Assembly: GCF_023703775.1 (NCBI RefSeq)
Contig: NZ_CP098514.1
Location: 1,302,001 to 1,366,000, forward strand
DNA from: Haloplanus sp. GDY1
Lineage (GTDB): Archaea; Halobacteriota; Halobacteria; Halobacteriales; Haloferacaceae
Length of the DNA stretch: 64,000 bases
Direction of reading: 5' to 3'
Shown: in pieces, positions 46,275-54,870 of the stretch
Layout of the letters: every line of letters begins with the position of its first letter
Position numbering within the stretch: position 1 is the stretch's first letter
The notes under the pieces: model-generated
Seen by the model: only the letters and a program-made list of their open reading frames with translations
Told to the model about the DNA's origin: nothing
The model's database searches: none
Position numbers and translations under genes: made by a program

Positions 46275-46972
46275 GGTCGCGTTAAGTTAGCGTGAAGAGT
46301 GAGGCGTGCTGATTTCTAAGTTGTTCATGCCCGAAATCAGCCGCCTCAGCGATGGTAGCGACTGGATCGAATTAGATTTTGTGGAGCGTCAGCGGACACC
46401 CGAGTTCGCGATGCGGCTCGGTATTCAGATGCATGTGGCGGGATTATCACTTTCGAATACCATCTCGATTCTTGAAAGGTTGGGTGTCGAACGATCTCGA
46501 ACGGCCGTTCACAACTGGGTGCAGAAGGCCGATCTACAGCCCGAAGGCGGTGCGAGCCCGAATCACGTTGCACTCGACGAAACTGTGATTCGAATCAACG
46601 ATCAGCAATACTGGCTGTACGCCGCCATCGATCCTGAAACGAACACATTCCTTCATATCCGGCTCTTTAGCACGTATACGACCGGTCTAACCGAAATTTT
46701 CCTGAGCGAATTACGCGAGAAACACGATGTCGAAACCGCCGTGTTTCTCGTCGATGGCGCCAAACATCTCCAAACTGCTCTCAATCGACACGGCCTCGAT
46801 TGCAGATACGAACTCCATGGCAATCGGAATGCTGTCGAACGTATCTTTAGAGAAGTAAAACGACGAACCTCTTCGTTTTCAAATACGTTTAGCCACGTGG
46901 AGCCGACGACCGCAGAATCGTGGCTCCAAGCCCTCGCCGTCTGGTGGAATCGATGCCAAAGTTAACGCGACC
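46275..46972 (+). mobile_element. IS6-family insertion sequence, 698 bp, with 8-bp target duplication
   Basis: The left end GGTCGCGTTAAGTT and the inverted right end GGTCGCGTTAACTT match at 13 of 14 positions. Direct repeats GTCGATCC flank both sides (46267-46274 and 46973-46980), the 8-bp duplication typical of IS6. One intact transposase gene inside, lower in GC than the surroundings. The perfect target duplication points to a recent insertion. It lies in the divergent promoter region between the PAS/GAF regulator and the SPFH gene, whose own presumed promoter (CCCTTTTGCC near 46988) remains. Confidence 0.93.
46306..46965 (+). CDS. IS6-family transposase
   Basis: 219 residues from GTG 46306, or 212 from the ATG at 46327 (MPEISRLSDGSDW), which fits known haloarchaeal relatives. 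DDE residues: Asp in HVALDETVIR, Asp in VFLVDGAKHL, and Glu in NAVERIFREVKRRTSSF. N-terminal HTH LGIQMHVAGLSLSNTISILERLGVERSRTAVHNWVQKAD. Complete length for the family and no frameshift, so probably active. Confidence 0.95.
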   Translation: MLISKLFMPEISRLSDGSDWIELDFVERQRTPEFAMRLGIQMHVAGLSLSNTISILERLGVERSRTAVHNWVQKADLQPEGGASPNHVALDETVIRINDQQYWLYAAIDPETNTFLHIRLFSTYTTGLTEIFLSELREKHDVETAVFLVDGAKHLQTALNRHGLDCRYELHGNRNAVERIFREVKRRTSSFSNTFSHVEPTTAESWLQALAVWWNRCQS

Positions 46973-48332: not shown

Positions 48333-48348
48333 TTTTGGCACGCCTAAA
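48333..48348. promoter_or_regulatory. DtxR/Idr-like operator upstream of the dps cluster
   Basis: TTTTGG-CACG-CCTAAA, an imperfect palindrome (one mismatch) immediately before an AT-rich TATA region (AAAATATTAG) and 52 bp before dpsA. The same half-sites occur as TTTAGG-CATA-CCTAAA at 50313-50328. Such TTAGG/CCTAA palindromes are bound by DtxR-family iron regulators (SirR/Idr) in archaea, so iron-dependent repression of the Dps genes is inferred. Confidence 0.6.
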
Positions 48349-48399
48349 ATATTAGATTTCTGATAATGTTTATCTGCATGGAGCGTCAAGTGGGACGGG

Positions 48400-48945
48400 A
48401 TGAGCGCGAAAGAATCCATCCGTCGTGAGGCGGGCAGCGTCGAGGACAACGCCGTCCGCATCGATACCGGGAAGGCCGAACAGGTTATCGAGGCGCTGAA
48501 CACCGACCTCGCGGCCACGTACGTCCTCTACCACCAGCTGAAAAAGCACCACTGGACCGTCGAGGGCGCGGAGTTCGGACAGCTCCACGACTGGTTCGGC
48601 GACGCGGCCGAGGAGGCCGAGGAGAACGCCGACGAAATCGCGGAGCGGGTCCAAGCGCTCGGTGGGGTGCCGATCAGCGGGCCGAGTGCGCTCGACGATC
48701 ACTCCATCGTGGAGTTCGAGGGCGAGGACGTCTACGACGTGCGGACGGCGATGGAGAACGACATGGAGATGTACGGCGACATCATCGAGTCGGTGCGCGA
48801 TCACGTCTCGCTCGCCGAGGACCTCGGCGACTACGCGACGGGCGAACTGCTCCGGGAGACCCTCGAGGACCTCGAAGAGGGCGCCCACGAGGCCGAGCAC
48901 TTCCTCGAGGACGACACGCTCGTCTTGGCGGACGCGACCCACTGA
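48400..48945 (+). CDS. dpsA: DNA-protecting ferritin-like protein DpsA
   Basis: 181 residues, ferritin-like four-helix bundle. The Dps ferroxidase ligands are all present at canonical positions: His51 (KKHHWTVEG), His63 (QLHDWF), Asp78 and Glu82 (NADEIAER). It oxidises and stores iron, detoxifies peroxide and protects DNA. First of three tandem dps genes. The start has a Tyr-free acidic N-terminus typical of haloarchaeal DpsA. A DtxR-like operator precedes it, indicating iron control. Confidence 0.95.
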   Translation: MSAKESIRREAGSVEDNAVRIDTGKAEQVIEALNTDLAATYVLYHQLKKHHWTVEGAEFGQLHDWFGDAAEEAEENADEIAERVQALGGVPISGPSALDDHSIVEFEGEDVYDVRTAMENDMEMYGDIIESVRDHVSLAEDLGDYATGELLRETLEDLEEGAHEAEHFLEDDTLVLADATH

Positions 48946-48958
48946 GGGGGTAAGAACG

Positions 48959-49537
48959 ATGGCGAAGAGACAGATCGGGCTGGTCAGGGAGCCGGACAGC
49001 GGCGACCGACGCCAAGCGTGGGGAACGATCGAGGAGACCGAACTCCGAATCGACCCCGACGACGCCGAAGTGATCGTCGACGCACTCAGCGTCGACCACG
49101 CCGGATCGTTCAACCTGTTTTACCTCCTGCGGAAACACTACTGGACGGCGGCGGGAGCAGAACACGACGAGGTCGCCGACTTCCTCGAAGCGGCGTACAA
49201 GCGCGTGCGGAGGATCAACGACGGCCTCGCGAGACGAATCGTCGAACTCGGCGGCATCCCGCCGAACACGCCGCCGACGATTCAGGAGCGGGCCGAGGTC
49301 CGTCTCGAAGCCGAGGACCTCTACGACCTCCGAGCGTCGCTGGAGGGGGATCTCGAGGCCTACGCGACGCTGGTCGCGAGCATGCGCGAACACGTCCGCC
49401 TCGTCGAGGGACGCGGGGACGACGGAACTGGGGAGCTACTGCGGACCCACCTCGAAGCGCTCGAGGCGGACGCCCACGACGTGGAACAGTTTCTCGAAGA
49501 CGACACGCTCGTTCGAGCGGGGACGACCGAACGATGA
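48959..49537 (+). CDS. Dps-like ferritin-fold paralogue with degenerate ferroxidase site
   Basis: 192 residues from ATG 48959, 13 bp after dpsA. It aligns over its whole length with DpsA (RKHYWTAAGAEHDEVADFLEAAYKRVRRINDGLARRIVELGG, TGELLRTHLEALEADAHDVEQFLEDDTLV). Three of four iron ligands are changed: Tyr61 for His51, Ala73 for His63, and Arg92 for Glu82; only Asp88 remains. It has an extended basic/acidic N-terminus. It may have lost ferroxidase activity and serve structurally, for example as a mixed-shell subunit. It overlaps the third gene by 4 nt (ATGA). Confidence 0.88.
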   Translation: MAKRQIGLVREPDSGDRRQAWGTIEETELRIDPDDAEVIVDALSVDHAGSFNLFYLLRKHYWTAAGAEHDEVADFLEAAYKRVRRINDGLARRIVELGGIPPNTPPTIQERAEVRLEAEDLYDLRASLEGDLEAYATLVASMREHVRLVEGRGDDGTGELLRTHLEALEADAHDVEQFLEDDTLVRAGTTER

Positions 49538-50103
49538 CGAGTACGCCACATCTCCGGAAACCCGAGGCGGACCACGTCCGACGGGAGTGGGATACGGTCG
49601 AGGAGACCGAGCTGCGGATCGACCGAGCATCGGCGGCACTGATCGTCGAAGCGTTGAATTCCGAGCTCTCCGGGCTCTACATCCTGTTCAACCAAGTCCG
49701 CAAACACCACTGGCTCGTCGAGGGCGCCGAATCGGACGACATCAGAACCTTCCTCCAAGAGGCCGCGGGCCGGCTGACCGACGTGACCGACGACATCGCG
49801 ATCCGCGTCGACGCACTCGGCGGCGTGCCCGTCTGTGGCCCGATGGGAATCCGACAGCACGCACCCCTCTACATCGAAGCCCCGCACCACTACGACATCC
49901 GCTCCTCGCTCGACCGCGATCTCGACGGCTACGCGGCGCTCGCGGTGCAGATGCGTGAGCACATCGAACTGGTCGAGCGGGTGGGTGACGCCGCGACGGG
50001 GGAACTACTGCGCGAACACCTCAAGACGCTCGAATCGGACGCACACGTACTCGAGAGATATCTCGCCGACGATACGCTGGTCAAGCGTCGTTCGTCCGAC
50101 TGA
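49534..50103 (+). CDS. Dps-like ferritin-fold paralogue, second degenerate copy
   Basis: 189 residues from ATG 49534, overlapping the previous stop (ATGA). Same fold: RKHHWLVEGAESDDIRTFLQEAAGRL, DALGGVPVCGPMGIRQHAPLYIEAPHHYDIRSSL. Of the ferroxidase ligands, His59 and Asp86 remain; His63 is replaced by Arg71 and Glu82 by Ile90. Its N-terminus (HLRKPEADHVRREWDTVEETELRID) shares ETELRID with the second copy, so these two arose from a common duplicate. It has three His more in the middle loop. Last gene of the dps operon. Confidence 0.88.
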   Translation: MTSTPHLRKPEADHVRREWDTVEETELRIDRASAALIVEALNSELSGLYILFNQVRKHHWLVEGAESDDIRTFLQEAAGRLTDVTDDIAIRVDALGGVPVCGPMGIRQHAPLYIEAPHHYDIRSSLDRDLDGYAALAVQMREHIELVERVGDAATGELLREHLKTLESDAHVLERYLADDTLVKRRSSD

Positions 50104-50122: not shown

Positions 50123-50302
50123 CTACTCGAGGAGCGGGACCGTCGTATCGGTCGCGATCCAGCCATCGGTGTTTCCGGGTTCGGTCAGAACAGTCCGGTC
50201 CGAGGTGACCTCGTGGAGGTTCAGTCCGGGGGTGTCGTCGGCTGGACCGTCCGCCGACGGTTCGACACTCGTGGCATCGGATGGCTGGCTGCGGGGCGAC
50301 AT
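50123..50302 (-). CDS. 59-aa haloarchaeal microprotein (DUF7331-like)
   Basis: Reads MSPRSQPSDATSVEPSADG to the end TDGWIATDTTVPLLE. Low-complexity acidic N-terminus, then the C-terminal block VTSDRTVLTEPGNTDGWIATDTTVPL, a pattern I know from small haloarchaeal proteins (DUF7331 type, name from memory). Codon use is normal and the stop lies 19 bp from the end of the convergent third dps gene. The start is 10 bp from the palindromic operator at 50313-50328, which lies between its TATA-like TTTTTAAT and start codon, so it should be repressible by the same factor. Role unknown. Confidence 0.7.
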   Translation of the reverse strand: MSPRSQPSDATSVEPSADGPADDTPGLNLHEVTSDRTVLTEPGNTDGWIATDTTVPLLE

Positions 50303-50312
50303 ACCGACTCGA

Positions 50313-50328
50313 TTTAGGCATACCTAAA
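50313..50328. promoter_or_regulatory. DtxR/Idr-like palindromic operator in divergent promoter
   Basis: TTTAGG-CATA-CCTAAA with perfect 6-bp arms, between the start of the 59-aa protein (10 bp away, minus strand) and the HTH regulator (ATG 66 bp away, plus strand). AT-rich bases on its right (AATTAAAAAG) supply a TATA on either strand. It matches the half-sites upstream of dpsA, so an iron-sensing regulator may control all three units. Confidence 0.65.
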
Positions 50329-50394
50329 TTAAAAAGATTTGGGACGCGTTTGGCGACACGCTTTTGCCGAGGCGACACGACGGTACAGGTGGAA

Positions 50395-51018
50395 ATGCCG
50401 GACGGGGACCGGGGGGTCGACACCGACAAGCGGGCTACGCTGCGACGCTTCGCCGCGCTGGGAGCGGCGACGCCGCTCGCCGGCCTGAGTGCCGGGGAGG
50501 CACGGGCGAAGACGGGGAGTACCGACGCCCGCGACGCCATCCTCGGCTACGTGAGCACGACGCCCGGTGCCCACTTCTCGAAGCTCCGCGACGACCTGAA
50601 ACTCGGCACGGGGGAGACCCAACACCACCTCCGTCGACTGCTGGACGACGGCGCCATCGTCTCCCGTCGCGACGGCGACTACCGCCGTTTCTTCCTCGCG
50701 GATCGCTTCTCGACGTTCGAACAGGTGGCGCTGGGCTACTTGCGCCGCGAGACGCCCCGCGGAATGGTGTTGACGCTCCTTCGTCACCCCGACGCGACGG
50801 GCAGCGAGATAGCGAGCGCCCTCGACGTGTCGCGGGCGACGGTGAGCACGTACGCCTCACAGCTCGACGACGCGGGGCTGCTGGACCGGACGGACGGCTA
50901 CGCCGTCGCCCGCCCGGAGACCGTCATCACGCTCGTGGTCCGCTACGCCGACTCCTTCGACGCCGAGACGCGAGCGTTCGCGGCCGACGCCGACTCCCTC
51001 GTCGCCTACGACCCCTGA
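50395..51018 (+). CDS. Regulator with two winged-HTH domains and a Tat-like N-terminus
   Basis: 207 residues from ATG 50395; an upstream frame to 50281 runs through the operator and is rejected. Two wHTH units: DAILGYVSTTPGAHFSKLRDDLKLGTGETQHHLRRLLDDGAIVSRRDG, then GMVLTLLRHPDATGSEIASALDVSRATVSTYASQLDDAGLLDRTDG, the tandem pattern of haloarchaeal MarR/ArsR-like proteins. The start KRATLRRFAALGAATPLAGLSAG looks like a twin-arginine or membrane-anchor segment, odd for a DNA-binding protein. It is divergent from the 59-aa protein across the DtxR-like operator. Target unknown. Confidence 0.8.
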   Translation: MPDGDRGVDTDKRATLRRFAALGAATPLAGLSAGEARAKTGSTDARDAILGYVSTTPGAHFSKLRDDLKLGTGETQHHLRRLLDDGAIVSRRDGDYRRFFLADRFSTFEQVALGYLRRETPRGMVLTLLRHPDATGSEIASALDVSRATVSTYASQLDDAGLLDRTDGYAVARPETVITLVVRYADSFDAETRAFAADADSLVAYDP

Positions 51019-53012: not shown

Positions 53013-54095
53013 TCAGAGCAGGCCGTCGATCCGTTCCTCTTCGAACGCCGACGCGGCGCTTTGCTCCTCGTTCGCCTCCTCCTCGCGGGCGGCCTGCCGG
53101 GCGCGTTCGAGGAAGCCGTCGAGGCGATCGGAGTCCGCCACGCCGCCGAGCAAGACGAGGGCGGCGAGTCGGTCGTCGGCCATCGGGAAGTCGCCGCCGC
53201 GGACCTCCATGGTGTCGAGTTCGGTCTCCAGCCACGAGCGGGCGCGCTCGACGCCCTTCCGGGAGATGGCCTCGGGGCGGCCGGCGACGACCAGCAGTCC
53301 GCGCTCGGCGCTCGTCGTGTCCGGGAGGCTCAGGCCGGACCTGATCGCCCGACGGGTGGTGCTCGTGACGACGTTGACGTTCGCGCCCGCGTCGCCCGAC
53401 GCCTCCGCGGCGGCGTAGCCGAGGGTCGCGACACCGACGCCGCGGAGCGTGTTTATCACCTCGGAGCTGTCGACGACGGACTCGCCGACGCCGTCGACGG
53501 CCTCCCCGGCCGCGAGGAGGAGGCCGACCCGGCGGGCGATGCGCTCGTTGATCGCCTCGTAGCCGGATTCGAGGCTCTCGCCCGACGACCGCCAGGCGTC
53601 GTTGTCGACCAGCAGCGTGGCGTCGGCCTCGCGGGTCAGCGTCTTCAGCGACCGCCCGGCGTTCACCTGGTAGAGCGAGCCCTCGTCGCGGCCGGGGAGG
53701 ATGCCGAGACCGTAGACGGGGACGTCGTAGACCCGCTTGAGTTCCTTGACGAGGTAGGGTGCGCCGCCGCTCCCGGTGCCGCCACCGAGGCCCGCGACGA
53801 CGAAGATGGCCTCGGCGTGGGCGGTCACCCGGCCGTCGATGGCACCCAGTACCTCCTGGATGTCCTCCTGCATCACCTCCGTGCCGAGTTCGTTGTCGCC
53901 GCCGACGCCGTGGCCGTTCACCCGCGAGCCACCGATGAGGACCGTATCGAGGGGGAGGGACTGGAGGTCGGAGCGCGCGCTGTTGACCGCGAGCGATCCG
54001 ATGATCGCACCGAACCCGTTCCGCGCGTCGAAATCGGACAGGGCGTCGACGACCTTGCCGCCGGCCTGTCCGACACCAATCAGGACGGACTTCAT
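53013..54095 (-). CDS. cetZ: Tubulin/FtsZ-superfamily protein CetZ
   Basis: 360 residues from ATG 54095 (MKSVLIGVGQAGGKVVDALSDF). Tubulin GTP-binding signature GLGGGTGSGGAP at 103-113 and an N-terminal GQAGGK. The T7 region is represented by ESVVDSSEVINTLRGVGV, a divergent text with the acidic residue. C-terminal tail EEERIDGLL. CetZ proteins control haloarchaeal cell shape and motility; the assignment to a CetZ subgroup is not possible here. It is transcribed divergently from the second pilus-like operon, with 115 bp between starts. Confidence 0.92.
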   Translation of the reverse strand: MKSVLIGVGQAGGKVVDALSDFDARNGFGAIIGSLAVNSARSDLQSLPLDTVLIGGSRVNGHGVGGDNELGTEVMQEDIQEVLGAIDGRVTAHAEAIFVVAGLGGGTGSGGAPYLVKELKRVYDVPVYGLGILPGRDEGSLYQVNAGRSLKTLTREADATLLVDNDAWRSSGESLESGYEAINERIARRVGLLLAAGEAVDGVGESVVDSSEVINTLRGVGVATLGYAAAEASGDAGANVNVVTSTTRRAIRSGLSLPDTTSAERGLLVVAGRPEAISRKGVERARSWLETELDTMEVRGGDFPMADDRLAALVLLGGVADSDRLDGFLERARQAAREEEANEEQSAASAFEEERIDGLL

Positions 54096-54210
54096 ACGTC
54101 CGACGTGTGTCATGCGTCCTCTTGAAGTCTCCGACGAGCGGCGGCGAGAACCGTCGTCGCGCGGCGCCCGGGCCGAGACTTTAGGGGCGATGCCGCGGCC
54201 ACCGCGTGCC

Positions 54211-54870
54211 ATGGACGACGCCCTCGACGAACGCGTCGACGCACTCGAACGCGCACTGACCGACGGTCACGCCGCCGACGGCCTCCCCGAGGCCGCCCGA
54301 ACGGCGTCCCGGGTGGACGAACTCGAGGCGACCGTCGAGGAGTTGGACGACCGACTGGCGGAACTGGAGGCCGCGGTGCAGGCCCTCCGCGGGTTCGCAG
54401 GCGGCGTCGACGCCGTCGACGAGGCGGTGGAGCGGCGGGCGAACGCCGCCATCGCCCGCGTCGAACGCCTCGAAGCCGAGGTTCGGGAAGGGGAGCGAGG
54501 ACGCCCCCGAAACCCCGACGAGACGCCGACCCGGCCGGGCGAACGCGACACCGACGGCCGGATCGCGCCCGGGAAGCGCGCGACCCGCCGCGGCGACTCC
54601 GACCCCGATCCCACGCGTCCCGACGGCGACCGGCCGTCGCCGAACCCCGACTCCGGGACGGCCGACGGTCGGCACGCCGGGGAACGGGCGGAGGCCCCGT
54701 CGGCCGCGAACGGGGCGCGAGGCGGGGCCGACGACCCGGGGAGGGCCACGCTCGCGGCGGCCGCCGCCGACACGGCGCGGGCCGAACTGGCGGCCGAGGG
54801 ATCGACCCCGGAGCCCGACGACGGGACGTCGGAGGCCACGCTGGCCGAGCGGATCCGTCGGTTGCTGTGA
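54211..54870 (+). CDS. Coiled-coil protein of the second pilus operon (DUF7310-like)
   Basis: 219 residues from ATG 54211; an ATG at 54190 is less likely because CTTTAGG near 54179 is a TATA-like element about 30 bp before the chosen start. Two parts: an N-terminal coiled coil (ERVDALERALTDG, VDELEATVEELDDRLAELEAAVQAL) with a helical hairpin, then a long disordered acidic/Arg/Pro linker, then EATLAERIRRLL. No TM. Its stop overlaps the next start by 4 nt (GTGA). Name DUF7310 from memory; possible cytoplasmic adaptor for the ATPase. Confidence 0.75.
   Translation: MDDALDERVDALERALTDGHAADGLPEAARTASRVDELEATVEELDDRLAELEAAVQALRGFAGGVDAVDEAVERRANAAIARVERLEAEVREGERGRPRNPDETPTRPGERDTDGRIAPGKRATRRGDSDPDPTRPDGDRPSPNPDSGTADGRHAGERAEAPSAANGARGGADDPGRATLAAAAADTARAELAAEGSTPEPDDGTSEATLAERIRRLL

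What the first reader, a model, noticed from the sequence alone, without database searches (positions are those of the whole stretch)
48400..50103. Three tandem Dps genes, two with lost ferroxidase ligands
DpsA keeps His51, His63, Asp78 and Glu82. The second copy has Tyr61, Ala73, Asp88, Arg92; the third His59, Arg71, Asp86, Ile90. The fold and C-terminal text (TGELLR, FLEDDTLV) are kept. Two catalytically impaired paralogues held in one operon suggest mixed dodecamers with a new role, such as DNA packing or modified iron entry.
Basis: partly seen in the sequence, partly recalled or inferred. Interest (0 to 1): 0.65.

Follow-up and report, generated by a model that had tools for sequence, protein, structure and literature searches.

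The report
Paired Dps proteins without iron site
Some salt-loving archaea carry, beside the normal iron-storing Dps gene, two extra Dps-like genes that always occur together, are sometimes fused into one protein, and have consistently lost the iron-oxidising site, which suggests a two-part protein assembly with a job other than iron oxidation.

Summary
Three tandem haloarchaeal Dps genes lie at 48400-50103 (A; B 48959-49537; C 49534-50103, ATGA overlap with B). A keeps His51/His63/Asp78/Glu82. B and C lack the site.

The loss is not a local accident. In 391 haloarchaeal genomes, B and C orthologues occur in the same 40 genomes (20 genera, 5 families) and are adjacent in every one. They are fused into one protein in two Halogranum species. 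B and C are each single clades (100% support) and sisters to each other. dN/dS is like that of A (medians 0.27 and 0.30 against 0.33). Canonical DpsA is next to BC in 25 of 40 genomes; the other 15 all carry it elsewhere.

Ligands: position 64 is never His in B (0/47) or C (0/48), Asp79 is kept (46/47, 48/48), and position 52 is mostly Tyr. The window's C-His59 and B-Arg92 are minority states. Nineteen control Dps from genomes without BC all keep the site.

An iron-box-like palindrome precedes most A-first operons.

Best reading: B and C form an obligate hetero-oligomer without a ferroxidase site, under putative iron control. Partnership is well supported; dodecamer, co-assembly with A, and function are inferred. 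DNA packing has no support.

The parts
48333..48348 (.). Palindrome TTTTGGCACGCCTAAA, putative DtxR/Idr-type iron box upstream of A
   Evidence: 1 mismatch to TTTAGGCNNGCCTAAA; only two sites with 2 or fewer mismatches in the 64-kb window, both flanking this operon; 16 places genome-wide for the related pattern with up to 1 mismatch, 0 for the reversed control pattern
48370..48376 (+). Possible TATA element (around TGTTTATC) about 30 nt before the A start codon
   Evidence: read from the sequence; inference, not tested
48400..48945 (+). A: canonical DpsA, 181 aa, ferroxidase ligands H51 H63 D78 E82 intact
48959..49537 (+). B: DpsA paralogue, 192 aa, ferroxidase site lost (Y61 A73 D88 R92)
   Evidence: AlphaFold2 pLDDT 82, pTM 0.77, best Foldseek match 1MOJ
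49534..50103 (+). C: DpsA paralogue, 189 aa, ferroxidase site lost (H59 R71 D86 I90); start overlaps the B stop (ATGA)
50123..50302 (-). Small DUF7331-like gene (59 aa), convergent with C; a frequent neighbour of dps genes, perhaps not part of the BC unit
   Evidence: 24.2 bits, below the 27-bit cut-off; convergent copy next to 12 of 47 BC operons and 15 of 17 other dpsA loci
50313..50328 (.). Second palindrome TTTAGGCATACCTAAA, upstream of the DUF7331-like gene and of the winged-helix gene that follows

Best explanation
A is an ordinary DpsA mini-ferritin. B and C are an old pair of DpsA paralogues that arose by one divergence from DpsA followed by a tandem duplication. They function as an obligate pair: B and C subunits join, most likely across the Dps two-fold interface where the ferroxidase site normally sits, into a Dps-like hetero-oligomer with no ferroxidase site. 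The metal bridge of that interface is replaced by Tyr52-Asp79' contacts and by charges that suit a heterodimer (Lys/Arg72 of B facing Asp72 of C). Iron oxidation is left to canonical DpsA, encoded in the same operon or elsewhere. Where A heads the operon, a palindromic iron box probably couples the three genes to iron supply. Shown: conserved pairing, fusion, single origin of each, purifying selection, loss of ligands, presence of the palindrome. Inferred: heterodimer geometry, cage formation, iron control. Unknown: whether B:C also enters DpsA shells, and the cargo or function.
For: B and C in the same 40 of 391 genomes, always adjacent. B-C fused in one ORF in Halogranum amylolyticum and H. 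rubrum, with different linkers. B and C each one clade (100/98 and 100/99) and together apart from all 46 canonical rows, which include 1MOJ (100/100). dN/dS medians A 0.333, B 0.272, C 0.300. Ligand columns: position 64 His in A 29/29, B 0/47, C 0/48; Asp79 in B 46/47 and C 48/48; Glu75 in A 29/29, but Arg in B 46/47 and Thr/Ser/Ala in C 48/48. Nineteen of 19 control Dps from genomes without BC keep H52, H64, D79 and E83. Position 72 charges opposite for B:C in 32 of 47 pairs, like-charged in 4; like-charged for B:B in 38 and for C:C in 45 of 47. Box at 3 or fewer mismatches in 24 of 28 A-first and 6 of 19 B-first upstream regions; Markov-shuffled mean 0.24 of 47, maximum 2. One box lies upstream of a DtxR-family gene.
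Against: No direct interaction or expression data. The fusion model has pTM 0.47, so the arrangement of its two halves is undetermined. Position-72 complementarity is imperfect (4 of 47 like-charged, 11 neutral) and rests on a two-fold geometry inferred from the ferroxidase site, not on coordinates. Co-occurrence and operon linkage would also follow from joint transfer without physical contact. B keeps Glu at position 83 in 9 of 47. Thirteen of 19 B-first operons lack the box. B is frameshifted in Halarchaeum rubridurum.
Confidence: 0.55

Rival explanations
1. B and C are inert subunits that mix into canonical DpsA shells, as L chains dilute H chains in animal ferritin, and tune the number of active sites or the mineral core.
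For: A is co-encoded in 25 of 40 genomes and present elsewhere in the other 15; same fold; precedents are heteropolymeric ferritins (PMC7762939, passages) and Magnetospirillum Bfr1/Bfr2, where the heteropolymer, not the single subunits, is active (PMC6529640, abstract and passages).
Against: A is not always linked, while B and C always are; acidic positions of A are removed or reversed in charge in B and C (72 in B, 75 in both, 154 in most of C, and His168), which is more than dilution needs.
Confidence: 0.25
2. B and C are DNA-binding or DNA-packing Dps proteins freed from iron work.
For: Dgeo_0257 of Deinococcus geothermalis lacks the conserved ferroxidase residues and binds DNA (PMC9820295, abstract and section 2.1). 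B and C have longer N-terminal tails (mean 27 and 26 residues against 19) and are less acidic overall than A.
Against: N-tails are still net acidic on average (about -1.1 and -1.3).
Confidence: 0.08
3. B and C are decaying or selfish duplicates without a role.
For: Patchy distribution (1 of 8 genomes of the window's own genus), position 64 of C drifting, one frameshifted B.
Against: Purifying selection, strict pairing, many newly fixed residues, retention across 5 families.
Confidence: 0.05
4. B:C bind a new ligand (another metal, haem or a small molecule) through residues fixed only in B or C, such as His106 in B and the C motif around positions 94-104. Compatible with the best explanation; it names a function for the pair.
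For: Positions 43, 46, 78, 95, 97, 98, 100, 106, 121 and 128 are fixed differently from A in B, in C or in both.
Against: No known motif recognised; no structure of the pair.
Confidence: 0.2

Closest known systems
DpsA of Halobacterium salinarum (PDB 1MOJ and others)
   Same: Fold and sequence family of all three genes; A keeps its ferroxidase residues; best match for each.
   Different: B and C lack the ferroxidase histidines, Glu75 and His168, and come as a pair.
Magnetospirillum gryphiswaldense bacterioferritin Bfr1/Bfr2
   Same: Adjacent paralogous ferritins, one with the ferroxidase site mutated, forming a hetero-oligomer (PMC6529640, abstract and passages).
   Different: 24-mer bacterioferritin with haem; only one of its two subunits lost the site, whereas here both B and C did.
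Animal H/L ferritin
   Same: Catalytic and non-catalytic isostructural chains (PMC7762939, passages).
   Different: Different subfamily; here there are two different non-catalytic chains, always together.
Dgeo_0257 of Deinococcus geothermalis
   Same: A putative Dps without ferroxidase residues beside a canonical Dps in the same genome (PMC9820295, abstract and section 2.1).
   Different: Only 11.5% identical to its canonical Dps, not a paired tandem duplicate.

Membership tests
Dps mini-ferritin (haloarchaeal DpsA) | Ferritin-like four-helix bundle with a short helix between helices B and C | tested here: met
   B: AlphaFold2 helices 33-66, 70-96, 105-111, 124-151, 155-180, Foldseek 1MOJ TM 0.82/0.88. 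C only by sequence and as half of the low-confidence fusion model.
Dps mini-ferritin (haloarchaeal DpsA) | Passes the curated DpsA model NF041388 (170 bits) | tested here: met
   A 292.1, B 181.3, C 197.5 bits. Passing it does not require the ferroxidase residues.
Dps mini-ferritin (haloarchaeal DpsA) | Intersubunit ferroxidase site (His, His, Asp, Glu) | tested here: not met
   Met by A; not met by B and C: His64 in 0/47 and 0/48. So B and C are Dps-fold relatives, not functional ferroxidase Dps.
Dps mini-ferritin (haloarchaeal DpsA) | Dodecamer of tetrahedral symmetry | not testable with these tools
   Needs native mass spectrometry or cryo-EM.
Dps mini-ferritin (haloarchaeal DpsA) | Three-fold nucleation glutamate E154 | tested here: inconclusive
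   Acidic in A 26/29, B 37/47, C 18/48; role of E154 from PMC12532284, passages.
DtxR/Idr iron regulon | Palindromic operator at the promoter, bound by the regulator in an iron-dependent way | tested here: inconclusive
   Palindrome found and enriched; one site precedes a DtxR-family gene. Binding and iron response not tested; the assignment of this consensus to Idr/DtxR is recalled.
Hetero-oligomeric ferritin | Two different subunits in one particle | not testable with these tools
   Indirect only: 40/40 co-occurrence, two fusions.

The most novel reading that the evidence does not exclude
B and C build a naturally hetero-oligomeric Dps-type nanocage with no ferroxidase site, in which the old metal site has become a heterodimer lock and the shell has been turned to a cargo or task other than iron oxidation, under iron control beside the normal iron-storing Dps.
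Probability: 0.3. Interest if true: 0.8.

Novelty: new variant of a known kind. Interest (0 to 1): 0.6.

Why it matters
Dps proteins are described as homo-dodecamers (for example in the PMC9103930 abstract, search listing), and standard annotation would name B and C 'DpsA' although they lack its catalytic site (a Halarchaeum plasmid record bears that name over a C-type match). If B and C co-assemble, this is a natural system for asking how a ferritin-type shell evolves from one subunit to two, and what a ferroxidase-free mini-ferritin is kept for. The fused Halogranum proteins are a ready-made test of the interface. It also warns against counting Dps copies as iron-storage capacity.

Tried and rejected
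Pseudogene drift: rejected on dN/dS and fixed residues. DNA packing: no basic tails. Conserved functional neighbourhood: none seen across genera (a crude ORF picker that let shadow ORFs through; of use only for genus-level patterns); only the small DUF7331-like gene recurs, and it is linked to dps genes in general. AlphaFold2 on the natural fusion, to see the B:C arrangement: pTM 0.47, inconclusive; the first alignment for it put B and C rows on the same half and was not used. Literature: six searches on Dps, seen as listings and abstract starts, gave no paper on a heteromeric Dps or on paired ferroxidase-less haloarchaeal Dps; most subscription papers are not held. Two papers were looked up and not held, so the original 1MOJ iron-site paper and the archaeal DtxR regulon paper were not read.

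Rows dropped before counts: Halarchaeum rubridurum B (frameshifted), L069 and L070 (partial), identical sequences collapsed. A n=29 includes one solo copy, L002. Internal stops flagged in four C rows lie at the C-terminal end, past the natural stop, as judged from the L040 ORF; the other three were not inspected singly. The E-value borders between B and C are close (4.8e-53 against 1.2e-52), so class was set by best match and tree, not by E-value. The box consensus was drawn by eye from the window and its relatives, so the window's own match is not independent.

Full report
What is there. The window holds three collinear genes of the haloarchaeal DpsA family: A (48400-48945), B (48959-49537) and C (49534-50103, overlapping the B stop by ATGA). 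All match PF00210, pass the NCBI DpsA model NF041388 and have Halobacterium salinarum DpsA (1MOJ) as best solved relative.

Distribution. A search of 391 genomes of the class (the window's own included) with B and with C, classified by best match, gave orthologues of both in the same 40 genomes: 12 in family f1, 5 in f2, 5 in f3, 16 in f4 and 2 in f8; 20 genera (counted by hand). C follows B in all 40. Within the window's own genus, 1 of 8 genomes has the pair. A is adjacent in 25 of 40; the other 15 genomes were searched with A and all 15 have a DpsA elsewhere. A scan of named contigs gave 26 loci, among them Natronorubrum, Halopenitus, Natronococcus, Haloterrigena, Natrinema, Haloarcula, Halogranum, Halorubellus, Halegenticoccus, Halarchaeum and Halorubrum; many are the same genomes as. 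In Halogranum amylolyticum and H. rubrum, B and C form one open frame with different linkers. In Halarchaeum rubridurum B is split by a frameshift, which may be decay or a sequencing error.

Evolution. In a tree of 141 rows, B (47 rows) and C (48 rows) are each one side of a branch (100/98 and 100/99); together they are separated from all 46 canonical rows with 100/100 (midpoint root, so polarity is inference). Pairwise dN/dS (Nei-Gojobori, pairs with dS 0.1-1.5) has medians 0.333 for A (406 pairs), 0.272 for B (1040) and 0.300 for C (1082), maxima 0.61, 0.71 and 0.75. These genes are under purifying selection.

The site. On 29 A, 47 B and 48 C distinct rows (1MOJ numbering): position 52 is His in 29/29 A, Tyr in 42/47 B, Tyr in 36/48 C. 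Position 64 is His in 29/29 A, Ala in 42/47 B, and mixed but never His in C. Position 79 is Asp in 29/29, 46/47 and 48/48. The 17 solo DpsA and 19 Dps from genomes without BC, chosen among the strongest matches to B or C (20 stretches fetched, the twentieth, L141, left out because its place was not that of a match), all keep H52, H64, D79 and E83. Only these 36 were examined; other multi-Dps genomes were not.

Heterodimer hint. In Dps the ferroxidase site is shared across the dimer interface (PMC6675082, passages). If residue 64 lies near 79' and 83', helix position 72 lies near the two-fold axis. There B is Lys/Arg and C is Asp: opposite charge in 32 of 47 pairs, neutral in 11, like in 4; a B:B contact would be like-charged in 38 and C:C in 45 of 47. 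This is inference from numbering, not from coordinates. B alone is modelled as a Dps subunit (pLDDT 82, pTM 0.77; 1MOJ best in the PDB). The fusion model (pTM 0.47) shows helical bundles in both halves but not their arrangement.

Regulation. The palindrome TTTAGGCNNGCCTAAA, with 3 or fewer mismatches, lies within 220 nt upstream of 24 of 28 A-first and 6 of 19 B-first operons; Markov-shuffled upstreams gave a mean of 0.24 and a maximum of 2 of 47. In the window the only two sites with 2 or fewer mismatches flank this operon. In the whole genome the related pattern with up to one mismatch has 16 places and no match to the reversed control. Neighbours of these sites include a DtxR-family gene, an ABC solute-binding protein, an HbpS-like gene and DUF7331-like genes, but also genes with no evident iron link, such as a release factor and polyphosphate kinase. 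No such site was seen directly upstream of the solo dpsA (L002). That the palindrome is an Idr/DtxR box is recalled, not shown. A review states that H. salinarum DpsA is lowered in iron deficiency (PMC3600143, passages). The box lies upstream of the possible TATA element, which would suit activation; inference.

Reading. The strict pairing, the fusions and the shared loss make a B-C partnership likely; the closest published behaviour is Magnetospirillum Bfr1/Bfr2 (PMC6529640, abstract and passages). Whether the product is a dodecamer, whether A joins it and what it does are open. DNA packing is not favoured: tails are net acidic. The pair passes sequence tests for the Dps family but fails the catalytic one, so B and C should not be filed as functional DpsA.

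Noticed in passing
50123-50302 (-); also L092-L107: A small DUF7331-like gene lies convergent to dps genes: 15 of 17 solo dpsA loci and 12 of 47 BC operons. Fifteen genomes examined hold 2-6 copies each. In the window genome three of the five copies have an iron-box-like palindrome just upstream.
   Followed up: partly
L052:5001-6188, L065:5001-6242: Natural B-C fusion proteins in Halogranum amylolyticum and H. rubrum.
   Followed up: yes
upstream regions of L017, L023, L024, L028: In some Haloarcula-type operons without A, box and TATA-like element remain about 106-111 nt before B, in some with a very short ORF between, as if A had been deleted.
   Followed up: no
49534-50103 (C) and 48959-49537 (B), 1MOJ positions 91-104: C carries a fixed loop motif (GPMGIRQHAP, often preceded by Cys) and B a fixed GGIPPNTPPTIQ; neither is in A. 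Function unknown.
   Followed up: no
50281-51018 (+): Winged-helix regulator related to HVO_0163 (PF24266) follows the operon, with the second palindrome near its start.
   Followed up: no
46306-46965 (+): IS240/IS6-type transposase gene near the operon.
   Followed up: no
53013-54212 (-): CetZ tubulin-like gene.
   Followed up: no
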